This document shows positions 4,792-14,925 of a stretch of 33,189 bases of DNA, piece after piece. The position numbers and the translations under genes were made by a program. Below the pieces are notes generated by a model. The model was not told the origin of the DNA and searched no databases. It saw only the letters and a program-made list of their open reading frames with translations. The DNA comes from Sphingomonadaceae bacterium (GTDB lineage Bacteria > Pseudomonadota > Alphaproteobacteria > Sphingomonadales > Sphingomonadaceae). The stretch lies in the NCBI GenBank assembly GCA_021732525.1, contig JAKFUU010000054.1, forward strand, positions 1-33,189, read 5' to 3'. The stretch's first letter is position 1; the number at the start of each line of letters is the position of its first letter.

Positions 4792-4928
4792 TAAAGTCTG
4801 TTTCAGTTACACTGAAACATTGAAGGCACCAGCCCACTCCCCCACCCGGCCACCCGTAGCATATCCTAACCGGGTGGTCGGGTGGGGGAGTGGGCTGGTG
4901 CCGCTTCCACGTAAGTGGAAAAACTCTA
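4792..4928. repeat. Triple-hairpin MITE-like element, copy 1
   Basis: A 137-bp element matching a second copy at 14787-14925. It has three foldbacks: a 9-bp stem with a TAC loop (4799-4819); a central stem of 31 bp with one G-T mismatch (4825-4855 with 4872-4902; the flanking G4856-C4871 pair adds one more); and a 6-bp stem TTCCAC/GTGGAA (4905-4920). The ends are TAAAGT and ACTCTA, an imperfect inverted pair, and the terminal 17 bases are imperfect inverted repeats of each other. TA at both borders would fit a TA-target transposition, as for Tc1/IS630-type MITEs, but that is inference. It lies between convergent genes, and its right end supplies the stop codon of the dipeptidase gene. Confidence 0.85.
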
Positions 4929-5636
4929 AAGCGCAGAAAAAACCACATCCAAAACCGGATATTTTGCCCAGTCGCGATGGTCGAAATGCCACCATTCATT
5001 CGCAATGCCGAAAAAACCGGCGGATTCGACATAATAGGTTAACCGGTCCCTATTCTGCCTTTCTTGCGCGCTACCGCCCGGAAAATCCCGATAGGCGCGA
5101 TCGGAAAATTCATCATAGGCGCTGGGCATTGGGACAAGCTGACCATCGGAAAGCCGGTGCAAGCCAATATCGACCGAACAGCCGCGATTATGGCGGCTTC
5201 CTCTTGCTGGATTGGCAACAAAGCTGCGTTTGGCGGGCGGGGTCGCATCCCATAACTGTTTGGTGACCGACCAAGGACGATAGGCGTCGAATATCGTCAG
5301 GCCAAAACCGTCTTTACCGGCCAGGGCAATCGCTTTACCCAAATCCTGAGCCGCCACGCCAACCAAAAAAGCGCGCGCCGATTGATATAACACCCGCCCG
5401 GTGAAATTGTTGGCAGTGGCATAGCGAATATCAAGCCGCAGACCATTGGGGCCATCAAACAACTCGGTAAGGCTGGCTTGCTTGGCATCCGTCAACGGGA
5501 TCACTGGCTCTCCTGCTAACGGGGGCGTTGGCCCGGCCGGCCCCGTGCGGCGCGTATCTTGCCCGCACCCCGCCACGCCTGCCGCCGCCGATAGCGCCGC
5601 ACCCACAACAACCGAACGCCGGGTTAAAGCCATCAT
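4926..5636 (-). CDS. D-alanyl-D-alanine dipeptidase (VanX/DdpX-like, M15D), predicted lipoprotein
   Basis: A 236-residue zinc dipeptidase predicted to split D-Ala-D-Ala. Visible family residues are the DIRYATANNF block, FDAYRP with Arg120, SRHNRGCSVD with ligands His149 and Asp156, and NEWWHF with the catalytic base Glu214 and ligand His217, so the active site looks complete. The N-terminus has twin arginines (TRRSVVV), a hydrophobic stretch and a lipobox VAGC with Cys24, so the protein is probably envelope-anchored and may recycle peptidoglycan fragments. No vanH/vanA-like genes are present, so a glycopeptide resistance role is not supported. The ATG is one base after the uvrA stop, with AAGGGA inside the uvrA end; MM gives two possible starts. 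The TAG stop lies in the terminus of the adjacent repeat element. Confidence 0.9.
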   Translation of the reverse strand: MMALTRRSVVVGAALSAAAGVAGCGQDTRRTGPAGPTPPLAGEPVIPLTDAKQASLTELFDGPNGLRLDIRYATANNFTGRVLYQSARAFLVGVAAQDLGKAIALAGKDGFGLTIFDAYRPWSVTKQLWDATPPAKRSFVANPARGSRHNRGCSVDIGLHRLSDGQLVPMPSAYDEFSDRAYRDFPGGSAQERQNRDRLTYYVESAGFFGIANEWWHFDHRDWAKYPVLDVVFSAL

Positions 5637-5637
5637 A

Positions 5638-8556
5638 TCATCCCTTTCGCGCCATCTTGGCCCGTTCCAACAAGGGCCTTAAATAATGCCCGGTATAGCT
5701 TGCCGGGGCCTTCACTATTTCCTCGGGCGCGCCCGCCGCGACAATTTCGCCGCCCTTCACGCCGCCTTCGGGTCCAAGGTCGATCACCCAGTCGGCGGTT
5801 TTGATCACGTCGAGATTATGCTCAATCACCACCACGCTGTTGCCGCCTTCGACCAAGCGGTGGAGCACTTCCAATAATTTACGGACATCTTCAAAATGCA
5901 AGCCGGTGGTGGGCTCGTCAAGGATATAGAGCGTTTGACCCGTTGAACGCCGCGATAATTCCTTGGCCAGTTTCACCCGCTGCGCCTCGCCGCCCGACAA
6001 GGTGGTTGCCTGCTGCCCTACCTTGATATAGCCGAGGCCCACTTCGCAAAGCATCGCCATACGCTCGCGGATCGGCGGCACCGCCTTAAAGCTTTCTTGC
6101 GCATCTTCGATCGTCATGTCGAGCACATCGGCAATCGACAGGCCTTTCCACTTCACCTCCAACGTTTCGCGATTATAGCGTTTGCCGCCGCATTCTTCGC
6201 AAGTGACATAAACATCGGGCAGGAAATGCATCTCAATCTTGATCAGGCCGTCGCCGCGGCAAGTTTCGCACCGGCCGCCTTTGACGTTGAAGCTAAACCG
6301 CCCCGGCTTATAACCGCGCGCCTCGCTTTCGGGCAGGCCGGCAAACCAGTCGCGAATATTGGTGAAGGCACCGGTATAGGTCGCGGGGTTGGATCGCGGC
6401 GTGCGGCCAATCGGCGATTGGTCAATTTCGATCACCTTGTCGAGATGTTCAAGGCCGGTCACTTTGTCATGCACCCCCGCGATCACCCTTGCGCCATTCA
6501 AGCTGCGCGCGGTGGCGGCATAAAGCGTGTCGATGGTGAAGCTTGATTTGCCGCTGCCCGAAACGCCGGTGATGCAGGTGAAGGTGCCCAGCGGCACGCC
6601 GGCCGTCACATTCTTCAAATTATTCGCCCGTGCGCCGTGGAGGGTCAATTTCTTGCCATTGCCCTTGCGGCGTTTTTTGGGAACCGCAATTTCGCGCGTT
6701 CCGTTCAAATAATCGGCGGTGAGCGAGCCTTTTGCTTTCAGGATTTCGGATAGCGGCCCCTCAGCCATTACCATGCCGCCATGCACGCCCGCACCAGGAC
6801 CAAGATCAACCACCCAGTCGGCGGTGCGGATCGCGTCTTCATCATGCTCCACCACGATCACGGTATTGCCCAAATCGCGCAGCCGCCGCAAAGTGGCGAG
6901 CAGCCGGTCATTATCCTTTTGATGCAGGCCGATACTCGGTTCATCGAGCACATACAGCACCCCCGAAAGCCCACTGCCAATTTGCGACGCAAGGCGGATG
7001 CGCTGGCTTTCGCCGCCCGACAAGGTGCCCGATGTGCGGTCCAGATTGAGATAATCAAGGCCGACATTGTTGAGGAAGCCCAGCCGTTCATTAATCTCTT
7101 TCAGGATCGCTTTGGCAATCTGCTGCTGCTGATCGGTAAGTGTTTCATTGACGCTGGAGAACCAGGCAAGCGCGTCACCCACGCTCATTCGGGTTGGGGT
7201 GGCGATATCGACACCGGCAATTTTGACAGACAAAGCCTCGGGCTTTAACCGCGCGCCGTGGCAGGTATCGCAGGGCTTTGAGGTTTGAAATTTGGATAAT
7301 TCCTCACGCATCCAGGCGCTGTCGGTTTGCAGCAAGCGGCGATGGAGATTGCCAACCACCCCCTCAAACGCCTTGCGCACGGTATATTCCTTGCGGCCAT
7401 CTTTGAAGGTCAGCTCAACCGGCATCCCGCTGGTGCCATGCAGGATGATCATCCGCTGATCGGGGGCAAGCGCGTTCCACGGGGTATCGAGGCTGAAATC
7501 ATAGGCTTTGGCGAGGCTGGCCAGCACTTGCATATAATAAGGCGAAGGCGGGTTCGATTTCGCCCACGGCACAATTGCCCCTTTTTTGAGGCTAAGGCTT
7601 TCGTTGGGGATCACCAGTTGCTCATCAAACTCCAGCCGTTCGCCCAGCCCGTCGCAATCGGGGCAAGCGCCTTGCGGCGCGTTAAAACTGAACAGGCGCG
7701 GCGCAATTTCGGCGATGGTAAAGCCGGAGACGGGGCAAGCGAATTTTTCGGAAAATACGATCCGGTTGGGCGGCAGACCGGTGCCTTTCATCGCGCCGCT
7801 GCCAGCGGCCTCGCCTTCGCGGCCCGGAACCGTGCCATCGGCCAGATCGACAAAGGCCAATCCGTCGGTCAGCTTGAGCGCGGTTTCAAAACTATCGGCC
7901 AGCCGGGTCTGGATGCCTTCCTTAATCACGATCCGGTCGACCACCACTTCGATATTATGCTTATATTTCTTGTCGAGTGCGGGGGCGTCTTCAATGGGAT
8001 AAAATTCGCCGTCGATACGCACGCGGGTAAAGCCGTCCTTCTGCCACCCGGTCAGCTCTTTGCGATATTCGCCCTTGCGCCCCTGCACCACAGGTGCGAG
8101 CAGGAAGGCGCGCGTTCCCTCGGGCAGCTGCATCACCCGGTCGACCATCTGTGTCACCGTTTGCGCGGTGATGGGAAGGCCGGTGGCCGGCGAATAAGGT
8201 ACGCCGACGCGCGCCCATAACAGCCGCATATAATCGTAAATTTCGGTCACCGTCGCCACGGTCGAACGCGGATTGCGCGACGTAGTTTTCTGCTCGATCG
8301 AAATGGCGGGCGACAAGCCTTCGATATGTTCGACATCGGGCTTTTGCATCAGCTCCAGAAATTGCCGGGCATAGGCGGACAGGCTTTCGACATAACGCCG
8401 CTGTCCTTCGGCATAAATCGTGTCAAACGCCAGCGACGATTTGCCGCTGCCCGAAAGACCGGTGATCACGATCAATTGATCGCGCGGCAGATCGATATCA
8501 ACGCCCTTGAGATTATGCTCGCGCGCGCCGCGAACTTTTATGTGGGTCAGGCTCAT
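5638..8556 (-). CDS. uvrA: Excinuclease ABC subunit A
   Basis: The DNA damage sensor of nucleotide excision repair, working with UvrB as a dimeric ABC-type ATPase in the cytosol. The 972-residue protein has two ATPase halves: Walker [10 protein letters not shown] near residue 33 and GVSGSGKSS in the second half; signatures [12 protein letters not shown] and [12 protein letters not shown]; Walker B ends [10 protein letters not shown] and [10 protein letters not shown]. The zinc module of the second half is complete (CETCRGDG and CEECGG). The first zinc motif reads CPVSG rather than CPxCG, as in many alphaproteobacterial UvrAs. A LexA box lies 10 bp before the ATG, so SOS induction is expected. 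The dipeptidase follows with 1-bp spacing. Confidence 0.98.
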
Positions 8557-8566
8557 GAGTGAAGTT

Positions 8567-8581
8567 GTTCCATATTTGTTC
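8567..8581 (-). promoter_or_regulatory. LexA (SOS) box upstream of uvrA
   Basis: GTTC-CATATTT-GTTC on the plus strand (GAAC-N7-GAAC in the uvrA reading direction) is an exact match to the alphaproteobacterial LexA consensus GTTC-N7-GTTC. It ends 10 bp before the uvrA start codon, where it would overlap the transcription start and block the promoter. No other exact match was noticed near recX or other repair genes in the window. Confidence 0.85.
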
Positions 8582-8616
8582 TGAAATTACAAGCATCAGT
8601 TGAAAAATAAATTGCT

Positions 8617-10308
8617 TTATTCTTCTGCCCGCGCGCGCTGAAACACCGGCTGGCCGGCGATCCATGTTTGGTCGACGATCGTGCGCCGAATTTCGCCGGG
8701 GGATGCCAGCAACGGATCGATATCAATCAGGATAAAATCGGCATGATGGCCGGGGGTTAACATGCCCAGCTTACCCTCGGCAAAGGCCGCATAAGCCCCG
8801 CCAGTCGTAAAGCCTTTCAGCGCTACCACGCGGCTGACGCGCTCTTGCGGCCGCCATCCGCCAAAGGGTTGCCCGCCCGCATCCTCGCGGGTGATGGCGG
8901 CGGCGATACCGGCAAAGGGATCGGCGGATTCCACCGGCACGTCCGATCCAAATGCAAGCCGCCCGCCAGCATTCAATATGCTTTGCCACGCATAAGCGCC
9001 GTCCAGCCGGTCCGGCCCCAGCCGCGCCTCGGCCATGGTCCGGTCCGATGTTTGATGCACCGGCTGCATCGACGAAATTATGCCAAATTTGCCCAGCCGC
9101 GGCAGATCGCGAGGATCGACAATCTGCACATGCTCAACCCGCCAACGGCGGTCCCCCGGAAAAGTTTCGGATAATTCCTCCACCGCCGCGATAACCTCTC
9201 CATTGGCGGCGTCACCAATGGCATGCACCGCGGGCTGGAACCCGTCCATCACCGCGCGCACCATCAAATTGCGCAGCTCGGCGCTGCCCAGAAACATCAG
9301 TCCCTTGTTATCCGCCGCGTCGGCATAAGGGGTTTTGAGCGCCGCCCCCCGGCTTCCCAATGCGCCGTCCAGATACAGCTTCACCCCGCCCAGCCGCAGC
9401 CGGTCATCATATAGCCACGGTGTCGGTCGCGGTCCGGCGATCGCCACCATATGATCGATGCCCGCCGCATAGCCGAAAATCCGGATATTCAGCGTTCCGG
9501 CATCTCCGGCCCGCCGGTAACTTTGCCAATCCTCGATCGTCGTCCCCATATCGGCGATTGCGGTGATGCCTTGCCGGATCAATATCTCCTGCGCCTTTTG
9601 CAGGGCGAGATCGCGTTCGGCGGGGCGCGGCGGCGGCACAAATTTGCCGATCAATTCGGACGCGGCGTCGACGAAAATCCCGCTTGGCTTGCCCGCCAGC
9701 TTTTCGATCCGCCCGCCGCTGGGGGATTGGCTGGCCGCGGTTACGCCAGCGATTTCCATCGCCCGGCTATTGGCCCAGCCGGCATGGCCATCCACCCGCT
9801 CCAGAAAAACTGGCCGGTCGGCGACCACGCTGTCAATATCGCCCGCATTGGGAAAGCGGGCCAGCCCCCATTTTTCCTGATTCCACCCTCTGCCGATGAT
9901 CCATCGGCGTTCGGGATATTGCGCGGCATAGGCGGCAATCGCCGCCTGCGCTTGCGCCAGGCTTGTGGTTTCGGTCAAATCCAGCGTCAGGGCTTGAAAG
10001 CCAATCCCCATGACATGGCCATGCGAATCGATCAGCCCCGGCAGCATTATTTTGCCCCCGGCATCGGTTTTAAAATCAAGCTGCTTGGGCCGTTTATCTT
10101 GCCGCTGAAGCAGCTGACTGACCTTGCCATCCTTGCCGATCAACAAGCCATTGAAACGGATCACCTCGCCTTTGTCATTCAGCGTGATGCCATTGACATT
10201 TTCGATCAAACCATCGGCCCATGCGGATGGCGCATACAGCAGAAGGCCCGCCGCGATGGCGGCAGTCCTGACCCATTTGGACATGACATAACGGTAAAAT
10301 GGCGTCAT
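8617..10308 (-). CDS. Secreted amidohydrolase family 3 protein (YtcJ-like)
   Basis: A 563-residue metal-dependent hydrolase of the amidohydrolase 3/YtcJ group. The N-terminus is a signal peptide (hydrophobic IAAGLLLYAPSAWA, likely cut after residue 31), so it should act in the periplasm. Metal-site motifs are present: DSHGHVMG after the first strand, VHAIGDAANGE, VEHVQI and AFGSDVPVE. The substrate cannot be told from sequence; amide or N-acyl compounds are typical of the fold. The start ATG overlaps the stop of the dehydrogenase gene (ATGA), with AAGG about 13 nt upstream, so both are probably translated from one mRNA. An internal Met at residue 9 lacks a ribosome site. Confidence 0.9.
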   Translation of the reverse strand: MTPFYRYVMSKWVRTAAIAAGLLLYAPSAWADGLIENVNGITLNDKGEVIRFNGLLIGKDGKVSQLLQRQDKRPKQLDFKTDAGGKIMLPGLIDSHGHVMGIGFQALTLDLTETTSLAQAQAAIAAYAAQYPERRWIIGRGWNQEKWGLARFPNAGDIDSVVADRPVFLERVDGHAGWANSRAMEIAGVTAASQSPSGGRIEKLAGKPSGIFVDAASELIGKFVPPPRPAERDLALQKAQEILIRQGITAIADMGTTIEDWQSYRRAGDAGTLNIRIFGYAAGIDHMVAIAGPRPTPWLYDDRLRLGGVKLYLDGALGSRGAALKTPYADAADNKGLMFLGSAELRNLMVRAVMDGFQPAVHAIGDAANGEVIAAVEELSETFPGDRRWRVEHVQIVDPRDLPRLGKFGIISSMQPVHQTSDRTMAEARLGPDRLDGAYAWQSILNAGGRLAFGSDVPVESADPFAGIAAAITREDAGGQPFGGWRPQERVSRVVALKGFTTGGAYAAFAEGKLGMLTPGHHADFILIDIDPLLASPGEIRRTIVDQTWIAGQPVFQRARAEE

Positions 10309-11174
10309 CTTTTCGGTAACCTTCGGATAAGCGCGCTGGTGTCTTGCCGCCCGCCGCCCATAAATTGAATGTCGGAATAATATTGGTCAACCATCGCCGC
10401 CAGCGGGATCGACGCACCATTGGACCTGGCCTCGTCCAGCGCCAGACCCAGGTCTTTGCGCATCCAATCGACCGCAAAGCCAAAATCAAATTCGCCGCGC
10501 GCCATGCTTTGCCAGCGATTATCCATTTGCCAGCTTTGCGCCGCCCCGCCCGAAATGGCTTCGAAAACCCAGTCCAGATCAATCTCGGCGCATTGCGCGA
10601 AATGGAGCGCTTCGGACAGGCCTTGTAAAATTCCGGCTATGGCAATTTGATTGACCATTTTGGCGGTCTGCCCCGCGCCCGGCCCGCCGACATGAACGAT
10701 CCGCTTGGCATAGGCTTGCATCACTTCGCCCGCCTGTGTTACCGCTGCCTCGCTGCCGCCGCACATGATCGACAAAGTGCCATTCTCCGCGCCGGCCTGA
10801 CCCCCCGAAACCGGCGCATCGACGCTGTGAATATCACGCGACTTCGCCTCCACCGCAAGCTGCCGCGCGATCCGCGCCGAAACCGTGGTATGGTCGATGA
10901 ATAACGCGCCCTTGCTCATCGCGCCGAATGCGCCGCCTTTGCCCAGCGTGACACGGGCCAAATCATCATCGGTGCCAACGCAGGCGATGACAATGTCGGC
11001 ACCATCGGCGGCCTCCGCCGGGGAAGCCGCAATGGTGCCTCCGTGCAAGGCGGTCCAGCCTTCCGCCTTGCCGCGCGACCGGTTGAAAATGGTCAAGCCA
11101 TGGCCCGCAGCAGCCAGATGCCGGGCAATCGGGCCGCCCATAACGCCGATTCCGATAAAAGCGATCTTCTTCAT
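10305..11174 (-). CDS. NAD(P)-dependent beta-hydroxyacid dehydrogenase (3-hydroxyisobutyrate dehydrogenase family)
   Basis: A 289-residue cytosolic oxidoreductase of the 3-hydroxyisobutyrate/6-phosphogluconate dehydrogenase superfamily. It has a Rossmann domain with GIGVMGGPIA at 8-17, the substrate motif DAPVSGGQAGAENGT at 119-133, and catalytic Lys172 in GQTAKMVNQ. The N-terminal NRSRGK after the second strand suggests NADP rather than NAD, since an Arg follows where NAD-dependent members have an acidic residue. The exact substrate (3-hydroxyisobutyrate, tartronate semialdehyde, succinic semialdehyde) cannot be assigned. AGGTGG precedes the ATG by 5 nt. It is divergent from threonine dehydratase over 59 bp and overlaps the downstream amidohydrolase by 4 bp. 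Confidence 0.9.
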   Translation of the reverse strand: MKKIAFIGIGVMGGPIARHLAAAGHGLTIFNRSRGKAEGWTALHGGTIAASPAEAADGADIVIACVGTDDDLARVTLGKGGAFGAMSKGALFIDHTTVSARIARQLAVEAKSRDIHSVDAPVSGGQAGAENGTLSIMCGGSEAAVTQAGEVMQAYAKRIVHVGGPGAGQTAKMVNQIAIAGILQGLSEALHFAQCAEIDLDWVFEAISGGAAQSWQMDNRWQSMARGEFDFGFAVDWMRKDLGLALDEARSNGASIPLAAMVDQYYSDIQFMGGGRQDTSALIRRLPKR

Positions 11175-11233
11175 GCCGCCACCTCTAAACGCTGTTTCTT
11201 CTATACGCCAGATAAGATAGGGGCCATTGCGAT

Positions 11234-12451
11234 ATGACCGACCACCTCACGCTTTCGCATGTTCAAGCTGCTCATCACCGGATTAAGGATGCCATCGTCA
11301 AGACGCCGACTTTGCATAGCAAAACGCTGTCGATGTTGACCGGTGCCAATATTTATCTGAAGTTTGAAAATCTGCAATTCACGGCCGCCTACAAAGAACG
11401 CGGCGCGCTTAATGCCTTATTGCTATTGTCCGAGCAGTCGCGGTCACGCGGGGTCATCACCGCATCGGCGGGTAACCATGCGCAGGGGCTAAGCTATCAT
11501 GGAACGCGGCTGGGCGTGCCTGTTACCATTGTCATGCCGGTGCCGACGCCCACGGTGAAGATTGTGCAAACCGAAAGCGTTGGCGGCACCGTGGTGCTGC
11601 ATGGGGAGACTTTCGATGATGCTTATGCCTATGCCCGGCAATTGGAGGCCGAACGCGCGCTCGTCTTTGTGCATCCTTTTGATGATCCCAATGTCGCCGC
11701 CGGGCAGGGCACGGTCGCGCTCGAAATGCTGGAGGCGGTGCCGTCATTGGATATGCTGGTCGTGCCGATTGGCGGCGGCGGTTTGATTTCGGGCATGGGC
11801 ACCGCATCGCGCGCGTTGAAACCGGACATCGGCTTGATCGGGGTGCAAGCGGCGCTTTATCCATCGATGTATGCGCAGATAAACGGCCGGCAAATGGCCT
11901 GCGAAGGCGATACGCTGGCCGAAGGGATCGCGGTGAAACAGCCGGGTGCATTCACATCCAAAATCGTCGAAAAGCTGGTCGATGAAATATTGCTCGTTTC
12001 CGAAGCGCAGCTTGAATCGGCGGTTAGTTTGTTATTACAAATCGAAAAGACGGTGGTGGAAGGGGCCGGTGCCGCCGGGCTTGCCGCGATCATCGCGCAT
12101 AAGGAAAAATTCGCGGGCCGCAATATCGGCGTGGTCCTGTGCGGCGGTAATATCGATACGCGGCTCCTCGCCAATGTTCTGCTGCGCGATTTGGCGCGGT
12201 CGGGGCGGGTCGCGCGGCTGCGCATTACCTTGCAGGACCGCCCCGGCGCGCTGTTCAAAGTGATGCGATCCTTCGATGCCCATCATGTCAATATCATCGA
12301 AATTTATCATCAGCGGATTTTCACAACGCTTCCCGCCAAGGGCTTGATCACCGATATTGAATGCGAGGCGCGCGATGCGCAGCAATTGCAAGGATTGGTC
12401 GAAGGTTTGCGCGCAGAGGGCTATACGGTCGAGCGGGTCGAGCTGAATTAG
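11234..12451 (+). CDS. ilvA: Threonine ammonia-lyase (dehydratase) with ACT domain
   Basis: A 405-residue PLP enzyme that deaminates threonine to 2-oxobutanoate, the entry to isoleucine synthesis. The Schiff-base lysine is Lys54 in AAYKERGALN; SAGNHAQG (78-85) and the glycine loop VVPIGGGGLISG bind substrate and PLP phosphate. A single C-terminal ACT-like domain (about 330-405, RLRITLQDRPGALFKVMR) indicates allosteric control. The length and single ACT domain match the short IlvA/TdcB-type enzymes rather than the ~514-residue E. coli IlvA, so biosynthetic versus catabolic use is not certain. AGGGG lies about 10 nt before the ATG. Confidence 0.92.
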   Translation: MTDHLTLSHVQAAHHRIKDAIVKTPTLHSKTLSMLTGANIYLKFENLQFTAAYKERGALNALLLLSEQSRSRGVITASAGNHAQGLSYHGTRLGVPVTIVMPVPTPTVKIVQTESVGGTVVLHGETFDDAYAYARQLEAERALVFVHPFDDPNVAAGQGTVALEMLEAVPSLDMLVVPIGGGGLISGMGTASRALKPDIGLIGVQAALYPSMYAQINGRQMACEGDTLAEGIAVKQPGAFTSKIVEKLVDEILLVSEAQLESAVSLLLQIEKTVVEGAGAAGLAAIIAHKEKFAGRNIGVVLCGGNIDTRLLANVLLRDLARSGRVARLRITLQDRPGALFKVMRSFDAHHVNIIEIYHQRIFTTLPAKGLITDIECEARDAQQLQGLVEGLRAEGYTVERVELN

Positions 12452-12525
12452 GGTCGGGACCGCGGGCATAGCATGACAATCAATAATCATTGCGCGTTAT
12501 GGGCGAAGACGGCTATCATTCTGAC

Positions 12526-13299
12526 ATGAAAAAACTTCGCTATCTTTGGGGTATTCCTGCCCTTGTCGCCGCGCCGGTTTCGGCCGAGGTCAGAAATGCC
12601 GAGGACAATGGCTTTGTCATCTTCCACACCGCCGAAATATCGGCATCGCCCGATGAAATATGGAAGCGATTGTTGGCACCCAAGGATTGGTGGCAAAAGG
12701 AACATAGCTGGTCGGGCAGCAGCGAGGGATTTTCTATCGAGCCGAAAGCGGGCGGCTGCTTCTGTGAATTATTTCAAGAAAAACAGGAAGACGGCACGCA
12801 AAAAACGGTTGGCAGCGTCGAACATATGCGGGTGATTTTTGCCCGGCCGGGCATGGTGCTGCGGATGCAAGGCGCGCTTGGCCCGCTGCAATCCGAAGCG
12901 GTCACCGGCACATTTACCGTCGCTATGGCGCAGCAGCCGGGCGGTAAAACCAGCAAACTCAGCTTCTCCTACATCGTCGGCGGCTATATGCGTTACAAAG
13001 TGGCGGCCATCGCGCCGGCGGTCGACAAGGTTTTGGCCGCACAATTTGCCAGTTTGATCGCGCCATTCCAAATTGCCGAAGTCAGCCCCGAATTGCCCGA
13101 CGGTTGGAAACTGGATGTTAAGGATCTGAAGCGCGCTGACGAGAGTGGGACCGATGATGCGGAAACGAGCAAACCGGATGATCCAGCGCCAAAATCTTCC
13201 GCAACCGTAACCCCTCCACCGGGAAAAGGAGGTAAACCCGCAGCGAAGGTTCAATCGCCGGTAACCGATCCCGCCAGCGCCGCGAAAAAGGACCGTTGA
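12526..13299 (+). CDS. Exported SRPBCC (START-like) domain protein
   Basis: A 257-residue protein from ATG 12526. That start gives a clean signal peptide (MKKLRYLWGIPALVAAPVSA), whereas the longer frame from TTG 12490 would bury it. Residues about 30-185 resemble the SRPBCC/polyketide-cyclase fold (VIFHTAEISASPDEIWKRL, WWQKEHSWSG, the paired strands before YIVGGY). The last ~70 residues are low-complexity, rich in Lys, Pro, Ala and Asp, and end AAKKDR. Function is unknown; the fold normally binds hydrophobic ligands. Its TGA is directly followed by the TTG start of the RimB-like gene, whose ribosome site lies inside this coding sequence, so the three genes to RimK look like one operon. Confidence 0.75.
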   Translation: MKKLRYLWGIPALVAAPVSAEVRNAEDNGFVIFHTAEISASPDEIWKRLLAPKDWWQKEHSWSGSSEGFSIEPKAGGCFCELFQEKQEDGTQKTVGSVEHMRVIFARPGMVLRMQGALGPLQSEAVTGTFTVAMAQQPGGKTSKLSFSYIVGGYMRYKVAAIAPAVDKVLAAQFASLIAPFQIAEVSPELPDGWKLDVKDLKRADESGTDDAETSKPDDPAPKSSATVTPPPGKGGKPAAKVQSPVTDPASAAKKDR

Positions 13300-13800
13300 T
13301 TGGTTGCCGTTTTGCAAAAAGGGCCCCGGCAAACCCGATCAAAAAAGAAGATAAATACCGTTAAAGAGATTGGCTGGTGCGAATTGGTGGATATTCCAAG
13401 CCTAGGCCTTAAACAAGTTCATGCCAAGATGGATAGCGGCGCGGCCACATCGTCAATCCATGCAACACGGATAAAATCATTTGAAAAAGATGGCCAAAAA
13501 TGGGTGGAATTTTCTTTTCACGCCAGCGCAAAAGACCAGATAGAGCGGATCCAAGCAAAGGTTGCCGATCAACGCAAAGTGCGCAGTTCCAACGGCAAGG
13601 AACAATTGCGCTTTGTCATCGAAGCGCAACTTTGTCTGGGCAAGCTATGTTGGGATGGGCATCTGACTTTGGCCAATCGCGGGTCGATGGCTTTCCCGGT
13701 CCTGATCGGGCGGCGCGCGTTAAGACGAGGGTTTTTGGTTAATAGCGGCAAAAGATGGATGCTCGGCAAGCCGCCGTCGGCAACGAATAAGAAGGGATGA
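13300..13800 (+). CDS. RimB-like retropepsin-type protease (RimK/LysX-linked, PF05618 family)
   Basis: A 166-residue protein of the family annotated as ATP-dependent zinc protease, whose fold resembles retropepsin aspartic proteases. The key stretch is AKMDSGAATSSIHA, equivalent to the DTGA-type active-site loop of retropepsins, preceded by IGWCELVDIPSLGL. A second characteristic block is FPVLIGRRAL. Members encoded beside rimK (RimB in Pseudomonas) modulate the tailing of ribosomal protein S6, which makes that role likely here. No ATG is available in frame; TTG 13300 is chosen because AAGGA lies exactly 7 nt before it. It follows the previous stop codon with no gap and ends 3 bp before rimK. 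Confidence 0.85.
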   Translation: MVAVLQKGPRQTRSKKKINTVKEIGWCELVDIPSLGLKQVHAKMDSGAATSSIHATRIKSFEKDGQKWVEFSFHASAKDQIERIQAKVADQRKVRSSNGKEQLRFVIEAQLCLGKLCWDGHLTLANRGSMAFPVLIGRRALRRGFLVNSGKRWMLGKPPSATNKKG

Positions 13801-13803
13801 TAT

Positions 13804-14709
13804 ATGAAAATCGCGATGCTCGCTCGCAATCCCAGTCTTTATTCACATAAACGGTTGAAAGCCGTGGCCGAAGCGCGGGGGCACCAATTGGATGTTATCA
13901 ACACTTTGCGCTGCACCATGAATATTACCTCGCACCGGCCGAGTATCTTATATAATGGCGAACCGCTTGGCGCTTATGATGCGGTCATCCCGCGGATCGG
14001 CGCGTCGATCACCCAATATGGTCTGGCCGTGCTGCGGCAGTTTGAAATGATGGGCGTTTGGTCGCTCAACGAAAGCGTGGCCATCGGCCGCAGCCGCGAC
14101 AAGCTGCGATCGATGCAGATTTTTGCCAAGCATGGTTTGGGCTTGCCCGTTACCGCCTTTGCCCATGACCCCCGGCAAACCGACGAAGTGCTGAAAATAG
14201 TCGGCGGCGCGCCGGTGGTGATTAAACTGCTCGAAGGAACGCAAGGCATTGGCGTTGTTCTGGGCGATACCGCGCGGTCGGCAAAATCGGTGATCGAGGC
14301 GTTTCGCGGCGCAAATGTGAATATCTTGGTGCAGGAATTTATCAAAGAAGCGGGCAATAGCGACATTCGGGTTTTTGTGATCGGCGGCAAAGTCGTCGCG
14401 GCAATGATGCGCACGGGCACCAAGGATGATTTTCGGTCCAACCTGCACCGCGGCGGCAGCGCCAAGACGATCAAGATCACACCCGAAGAGCGCTCCACCG
14501 CAATCCGCGCGGCGCGGGTTATGGGGTTAAATGTCGCGGGCGTCGACCTGCTGCGCGCCAATCACGGACCGGTGATCATGGAAGTCAACAGCTCGCCCGG
14601 CCTCGAAGGATTGGAAGGCGCAACGGGCCTGGATGTCGCTGCACGAATTATCGAATTTATCGAAAAAAATGCAAAAGTCGGCGCAACAAAAACCAAGGGG
14701 AAAGGGTAA
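13804..14709 (+). CDS. rimK: Ribosomal protein S6--L-glutamate ligase (RimK)
   Basis: A 301-residue ATP-grasp ligase that adds glutamate residues to the C-terminus of ribosomal protein S6. It resembles E. coli RimK over its whole length: [91 protein letters not shown] and [11 protein letters not shown]. The last motif holds the metal-binding Glu and Asn. The N-terminal domain is about residues 1-95 and ATP-grasp about 105-290; the C-terminal tail is basic. AAGGGA precedes the ATG by about 7 nt. It is the third gene of the SRPBCC-RimB-RimK unit; the gene for S6 is not in the window. Confidence 0.95.
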
Positions 14710-14710
14710 A

Positions 14711-14736
14711 CCCGCCTTCGCGGGGGTAACGAAGCT
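14711..14736. repeat. REP-like small palindrome after rimK
   Basis: CCCGC-CTTC-GCGGG (14711-14724), followed by GGTAACGAAG, begins one base after the rimK stop. The motif resembles the short REP-type palindromes with a CCTTCGCGGG core that are scattered in many sphingomonad genomes. The stem is 5 bp and has no T-run behind it, so it is at best a weak terminator. Confidence 0.4.
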
Positions 14737-14786
14737 ATGGATTTTGCGCGACTTACAAAATAAATATCAACACGGCCTAAGGTTTT

Positions 14787-14925
14787 TAGAGTCTGTTTCA
14801 GTTACATTGAAACATTGGCAGCACCAGCCCACTCCCCCACCCGGCCACCCGATCAGGATATGCTATGGGTGGCCGGGTGGGGGGAGTGGGCTGGTGCCGC
14901 TTCCACATAAGTGGAAAAAACTCTA
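14787..14925. repeat. Triple-hairpin MITE-like element, copy 2
   Basis: A 139-bp element equivalent to copy 1 at 4792-4928. The ends are a perfect inverted pair TAGAGT/ACTCTA. It has hairpin 1 (14794-14814), a central stem of about 30 bp (14821-14850 with 14867-14897, one extra G on the right arm) and hairpin 3 TTCCAC-ATAA-GTGGAA (14901-14916). The outer hairpins have the same orientation as in copy 1. The 16-nt apical loop (14851-14866), however, matches copy 1 only as its reverse complement: TAGCATATCCT is read on the opposite strand. It lies between the convergent genes rimK and the GGDEF-EAL gene. There is no coding sequence inside. Confidence 0.85.

What the first reader, a model, noticed from the sequence alone, without database searches (positions are those of the whole stretch)
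4792..14925. Two copies of a triple-hairpin element whose central loop is inverted relative to its flanks
Copies at 4792-4928 and 14787-14925 align in the same orientation through both outer hairpins and both arms of the ~31-bp central stem. The 16-nt apical loop matches only as reverse complement: 13 of 16 identities inverted versus 3 of 16 direct, with TAGCATATCCT shared exactly. An element that flips its loop while its ends stay fixed suggests inversion between the long arms, by recombination, an invertase, or template switching at a replication fork. I do not know this behaviour to be described for such repeats.
Basis: seen in the sequence. Interest (0 to 1): 0.75.

Follow-up and report, generated by a model that had tools for sequence, protein, structure and literature searches.

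The report
DNA hairpins whose loops flip
A scattered, hairpin-forming DNA repeat found in many related bacteria has repeatedly turned its central loop around while its ends stayed put; this is best read as a copying slip at a long inverted repeat, a process known in other organisms, seen here in a whole repeat family.

Summary
The window's genome (a Sphingomonadaceae-like draft) has nine full copies of the ~138-bp element. Oriented by the outer hairpins, the loop reads one way in 3 and the other in 6; two pairs of copies have cores that are exact reverse complements over 76 nt. At orthologous sites of related species the loop is inverted at 6 of 15 loci with comparable loops. Only 5 of these loci keep both outer modules, and 2 of those 5 are inverted; in one, a 91-nt core is exactly reversed between unchanged outer hairpins. 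A two-contig genome shows both orientations too, which argues against misassembly. A model of the core matches 124 of 296 genomes sampled in the order and 18 further genomes of the class. Arms co-vary within copies in 11 of 12 genomes, though not in the home genome. Arm homogenisation plus spacer inversion are the published marks of polymerase template switching between inverted repeats in yeast; loop inversions are also known in rRNA genes and plastids. So the mechanism is probably known, and a bacterial repeat family doing it is a new variant. No Y1-transposase association was found; invertases and flipping in living cells were not tested.

The parts
4792..4928 (+). Element copy 1 (forward loop), from TAAAGTC to ACTCTA
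4799..4819 (+). Outer hairpin 1, TGTTTCAG-TTACA-CTGAAACA
4825..4856 (+). Left arm of the core palindrome
4857..4870 (+). Loop TAGCATATCCTAAC, forward orientation
4871..4902 (+). Right arm; carries the T variant (GGTGGTCGGG)
4905..4920 (+). Outer hairpin 2, TTCCAC-GTAA-GTGGAA
14787..14925 (+). Element copy 2 (reverse loop), from TAGAGTC to ACTCTA
14794..14814 (+). Outer hairpin 1 of copy 2
14821..14850 (+). Left arm of copy 2
14851..14866 (+). Loop GATCAGGATATGCTAT, reverse orientation
14867..14897 (+). Right arm of copy 2 (one extra G)
14901..14916 (+). Outer hairpin 2 of copy 2

Best explanation
The element is a non-coding, dispersed, mosaic palindromic repeat: a long GC-rich inverted repeat with a loop of mostly 10-17 nt, flanked by small hairpins. 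The loop inverts in place because the two arms are near-perfect inverted repeats. During replication the nascent strand switches at one arm to the other template strand, copies across the loop, and switches back at the other arm. This turns the loop, and whatever inner-arm differences it spans, while the ends stay fixed. The same switching copies one arm onto the other and keeps the palindrome near perfect. Shown: inversion in place, inclusion of inner arm, both orientations in several genomes, arms co-varying within copies in most genomes tested. Inferred: that the agent is template switching rather than another hairpin- or cruciform-based exchange, and that no dedicated enzyme is needed.
For: (1) 3:6 loop orientation among 9 copies with fixed outer hairpins. 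All four combinations of loop orientation and arm variant T/C occur among the 8 copies without an arm deletion, and the arm variant changes side with the loop; one single flip does not explain this unless the arm change recurred. (2) Orthologous sites: L136/L163, the 91-nt core (17-nt loop plus 37 nt each side) is identical when read with the flanks reversed, and the adjacent outer hairpins are the same; L272/L279, outer modules 0.93/0.91 identical, loop flipped with two substitutions; L314/L324, 60 nt reversed including an arm mismatch, left outer module 0.71, right one replaced 0.37. By rule, 6 loci flipped and 9 same-only; with both outer modules at least 0.7 identical, 2 of 5 flipped. (3) Two-contig genome G237: in the frame of the Q hairpin, the loop of L484 is the exact reverse complement of L483 and L485; 2 against 3 among the five copies with Q. 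(4) Variable arm positions pair within a copy more than across copies: position 7 0.92 v 0.62, position 12 0.97 v 0.61, position 20 0.90 v 0.56. (5) Control: other inverted repeats with 7-11 bp arms in the flanks of the same pairs, 64 of 66 same, 0 flipped, 2 unclear. In the home genome the loops of hairpins 1 and 2 are not inverted in any of the 9 full copies. (6) Arm homogenisation plus spacer inversion is the published mark of template switching (PMC8604942).
Against: No cell or read data: flipping is inferred from differences between copies and species. Published spacer inversions are shorter (2-5 bp changed in yeast; up to 7-8 nt in rRNA). In the home genome arm pairing within copies is no better than across copies (0.905 v 0.910; L008 and L009 carry arm indels). 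In 4 of the 6 flipped loci at least one outer module differs, so there a replaced or wholly inverted element could look like a flipped loop. The flank control has arms of 11 bp or less, only 5 cases of 9-11 bp, much coding DNA and non-independent rows. 16 of 40 rows are unrelated or ambiguous, so exchange between copies also occurs. Arm co-variation could also come from selection for the stem.
Confidence: 0.68

Rival explanations
1. Exchange between copies: because the arms are symmetrical, a copy can be converted by another copy lined up in reverse, which would replace the loop by an inverted one.
For: At many orthologous sites loop or outer modules differ, and outer modules occur on either side of the core (by eye), so copies do swap parts. 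The loop of L163 occurs also in L176 of the same genome.
Against: L314/L324: the 10-nt loop is found at no other copy read from G223, G083 or G368, yet 60 nt are reversed in place. In the home genome hairpins 1 and 2 never change sides in 9 copies. The arms of L163 match L136 and not L176.
Confidence: 0.14
2. A dedicated enzyme (invertase or hairpin-cutting recombinase) recognises the loop motif or the arms and turns the loop, perhaps as a switch.
For: Loop motif conserved: of 90 14-nt loops, T at position 8 in 82, A at 9 in 84, T at 13 in 81, A at 14 in 78 (loops were first turned to fit one reference, which raises these numbers). Arms and a related loop recur in more distant genomes of the class.
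Against: Y1 transposases do not track the element. The spread of orientations over species-level divergence needs only a low rate (inference). Other enzymes were not searched for.
Confidence: 0.11
3. The core is itself mobile and was inserted into the outer frame in either orientation, or two old subfamilies exist.
For: Outer modules and cores combine in many ways.
Against: Two orthologous sites with the same outer modules and arms differ in loop orientation. All four combinations of orientation and arm variant occur.
Confidence: 0.04
4. Assembly artefact: short-word assemblers cannot orient a loop between long perfect arms.
For: The home genome is a 68-contig draft; G223 and G368 are drafts of about 170 and 110 contigs. 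The sequencing method of no genome is known to me.
Against: Both orientations occur in G237, two contigs. Inner-arm mismatches flip with the loop, so only words shorter than about 25 would be ambiguous (inference).
Confidence: 0.03

Closest known systems
Inverted-repeat spacer inversion with arm homogenisation by polymerase template switching (yeast, PMC8604942; rRNA hairpins, PMC8794818)
   Same: Fixed ends, inverted spacer, arms corrected onto each other, recurrent and reversible; PMC8604942 also cites earlier work by its authors that infers repeated switching at short inverted repeats of proteobacteria
   Different: Here arms of about 31 bp, loops of mostly 10-17 nt, and a whole dispersed bacterial repeat family rather than scattered single sites
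Plastid trnH-psbA hairpin inversions (PMC2903610, abstract only)
   Same: Frequent inversions at palindromic sequence, also polymorphic within species
   Different: One plastid spacer, not a dispersed bacterial repeat
REP/BIME/REPIN palindromic repeats (PMC3733652 and PMC12306157 searched for terms; PMC3116915 listing only)
   Same: Largely intergenic, palindromic, dispersed, mosaic, many copies in some genomes
   Different: Much longer core; no Y1 transposase association; the string Sphingo is absent from five repeat or hairpin papers searched for it
MITEs (definition recalled)
   Same: Short, non-coding, inverted ends such as TAGAGT...ACTCTA in most home copies
   Different: No partner transposase and no target duplication identified

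Membership tests
Template-switch spacer inversion (process) | Spacer inverted between unchanged arms at the same locus | tested here: met
   L136/L163 exact, L272/L279 with two substitutions; L314/L324 exact over 60 nt but one outer module replaced
Template-switch spacer inversion (process) | Arms homogenised within a copy | tested here: met
   11 of 12 genomes with 4 or more copies, 171 cores; not in G000, the window's own genome
Template-switch spacer inversion (process) | RecA-independent, dependent on arm length and replication | not testable with these tools
   only indirect: 0 flips of 66 for arms of 7-11 bp
REP/REPIN mobilised by RAYT (Y1 transposase) | Y1 transposase (PF01797) in genomes that carry many copies | tested here: not met
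   E <= 1e-6 in 6 of 30 carrier genomes and 2 of 30 non-carriers; none in G000, G117, G231, G223, G164
Phase-variable inverton | Adjacent site-specific recombinase and mixed orientation in one population | not tested
   no reads available; neighbouring proteins were not searched for recombinases
RIB/RIP elements with IHF site between palindromes (recalled) | IHF consensus in the loop | tested here: not met
   WATCARNNNNTTR in 1 of 173 cores (0.3 by shuffling); without the final R 22 of 173 against 0.6, a partial likeness
MITE | Terminal inverted repeats and target duplication | tested here: inconclusive
   ends TAGAGT...ACTCTA in most home copies; no target duplication seen by eye
Rfam family | Score over gathering threshold | tested here: not met
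   7 loci scanned, 46 matches, all below threshold

The most novel reading that the evidence does not exclude
The conserved loop is a recognition site for an unknown hairpin-acting protein that maintains and spreads this class-wide palindrome, and flipping is part of, or a by-product of, its processing of a cruciform or single-stranded hairpin: an actively flipping bacterial repeat, in principle a very small orientation switch.
Probability: 0.12. Interest if true: 0.85.

Novelty: new variant of a known kind. Interest (0 to 1): 0.52.

Why it matters
It offers many natural records of loop inversion and arm correction in bacterial chromosomes, so the rate of template switching and the effect of arm and loop length could be measured by comparing genomes. 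It also points to a large palindrome family in Alphaproteobacteria, not found in the papers I could search, whose arms and loop are conserved without a known partner protein.

Tried and rejected
IHF site in the loop: not supported. Y1 transposase partner: not supported. Rfam family: none over threshold. Phage carriage: no match. Plasmids: 3 records, too few for same-site comparison. Same-site comparison in the home genus: I searched only the gene beside copy 2; the nearest relative was 79% identical there, and I did not inspect those loci for the element. Protein search for named relatives gave family-level placement only (best 85%, an uncultured Sphingomonadaceae, records near the window may be left out). 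Gene context by a rough reading-frame score: 7 of 9 home copies between convergent genes; over 172 copies 49 convergent, 30 divergent, 93 tandem, so no clear rule. A slice meant for hairpin 1 was cut wrongly and is not used. L128/L157 looks flipped by eye but fails the rule (an arm deletion spoils the loop bounds) and is not counted. G120 (one contig) copies with like outer modules look opposite in orientation by eye; not counted.

Full report
What is there. The two copies are real and placed as stated. Each has an AGAGTC-like end, a small hairpin (8-bp stem), a core palindrome of about 31-bp arms with a 14-16 nt loop, a second small hairpin (6-bp stem) and an ACTCTA end. The core folds as DNA at -46.8 and -43.5 kcal/mol against shuffle means of -17.1 and -18.4. 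The genome has nine full copies and several partial ones.

Loop orientation in the home genome. Oriented by hairpin 1, copies L001, L002 and L003 read TAGCATATCCT and L004 to L009 read AGGAYATGCTA. L002 and L004, and L003 and L006, have cores that are exact reverse complements over 76 nt. A T variant in the arm sits on the right in L001 and L003 and on the left in L006 and L007, so it moved with the loop. With the C form in L002 (forward) and L004, L005, L008 (reverse), all four combinations exist; L009 (reverse, C) lacks 8 nt of one arm. The loops of the two outer hairpins are not inverted in any of the nine copies.

Family. A covariance model of the core matches 14 of 45 genomes of the genus and 124 of 296 sampled from the order, in 32 of 79 genera, at E <= 0.001, and 19 of 289 sampled from the class at E <= 1e-5. 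One of the 19 is the home genome; the other 18 are listed as same class only. Nine of these distant loci were read: the arms and, in several, an AGGAT-like loop are recognisable. Of 173 cores scored, 169 have loops of 10-17 nt and 90 of exactly 14 nt, with a consensus near ATCAGGATATTCTA. That count first turned each loop to fit a reference, counts three loci twice, and includes one palindrome of another family (L347). No Rfam family reaches threshold.

Orthologous sites. Copies were fetched with flanks from two species groups: G117 (27 of 28 copies found), G231 (20 of 20), G188 (6 of 6) and G223 (21 of 21), G083 (23 of 23), G368 (19 of 19). Pairs were accepted when both flanks matched; three fetched loci with palindrome scores under 14 (L179, L346, L348) were dropped. 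The rule gave 40 rows: 8 flipped, 16 same, 16 unrelated or ambiguous. Three of the same rows are one locus fetched twice and are dropped, and one unrelated pair appears twice. By locus, 6 show a flip and 9 only the same orientation; flank identities run from 81 to 94%. Two of the six flipped loci also contain a same pair, because three species were compared. Among pairs whose outer modules are both at least 0.7 identical, 2 of 5 are flipped (L136/L163 and L272/L279; same: L104/L151, L155/L169, L285/L325). In the other four flipped loci at least one outer module differs, so they are weaker. In L136/L163 the 91-nt core is identical when the flanks are laid in opposite directions, and the third species has only 79 bp between the flank matches there. 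In L314/L324 60 nt are reversed with an arm mismatch included. As a control, inverted repeats with 7-11 bp arms in the flanks were 64 of 66 same, 2 unclear and none flipped.

Not an assembly error. In G237 (two contigs) five of the 19 printed copies carry the Q hairpin by pattern. In the Q-left frame L359 and L484 read GYCAGGCTATCCTCA, and L358, L483 and L485 read TGAGRATAGCYTGGC.

Arms. In 11 of 12 genomes with at least four copies the two arms of one copy pair better than arms of different copies, most at the variable positions (174 of 185 cores usable, 171 in these 12 genomes). The home genome is the exception (0.905 v 0.910). So arms are corrected, or selected, within each copy.

How it most likely works. 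Template switching between strands both inverts a spacer and homogenises arms; this is described for yeast, with 2-5 bp changed in the spacers and arms over 9 bp (PMC8604942, abstract and passages), and loop inversions up to 7-8 nt are shown in rRNA genes including bacterial ones (PMC8794818, passages). Plastid trnH-psbA inversions are polymorphic within species (PMC2903610, abstract). Here both marks occur with longer arms and loops. A rough inference: flips at 6 of 15 loci (or 2 of 5) at about 10% divergence mean a flip rate several times the per-site substitution rate, which is low compared with dedicated invertases (recalled) and needs no enzyme. A cruciform-based exchange would leave the same marks and is not excluded. 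Exchange between copies also happens, since loops and outer modules are often replaced at a site. After checking, confidence in this explanation was lowered from 0.70 to 0.68, because only two of the six flipped loci keep both outer modules.

What is not known. Function of the element, its mode of spread, and why the loop motif is conserved. Y1 transposase does not track it (6 of 30 carriers, 2 of 30 non-carriers). An IHF site is not supported. I found no paper on this palindrome family or on loop flipping in a dispersed bacterial repeat in nine searches of the open-access library; most subscription papers are not held there.

Noticed in passing
L019, L020, L021, L022, L023 (home genome): Partial elements: right halves, left halves, and one (L022) in which most of the core is deleted and the two outer hairpins are brought together.
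   Followed up: partly
L132-L179, L466-L479: In other genera small outer hairpin modules of several kinds occur on either side of the core, as if half-elements are exchanged between copies (by eye).
   Followed up: partly
L346 and L347, centre: Where G223 has the element (L079), two close relatives have a different palindrome family (CCCCTCCCCTTCAGGGGAGGGG, with a 28-29 nt loop) at the same site, same loop orientation in both.
   Followed up: no
L506-L514: Very similar core arms in genomes related only at class level; conservation over this distance is unexplained.
   Followed up: partly
window 14711-14726: A separate short GC-rich palindrome (CCCGCCTTCGCGGGGG) lies just upstream of copy 2.
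   Followed up: no
NZ_CP017076.1, NZ_AP017899.1, NZ_CP079204.1: Cores also occur on three plasmid records (Novosphingobium, Sphingopyxis, Sphingomonas).
   Followed up: no
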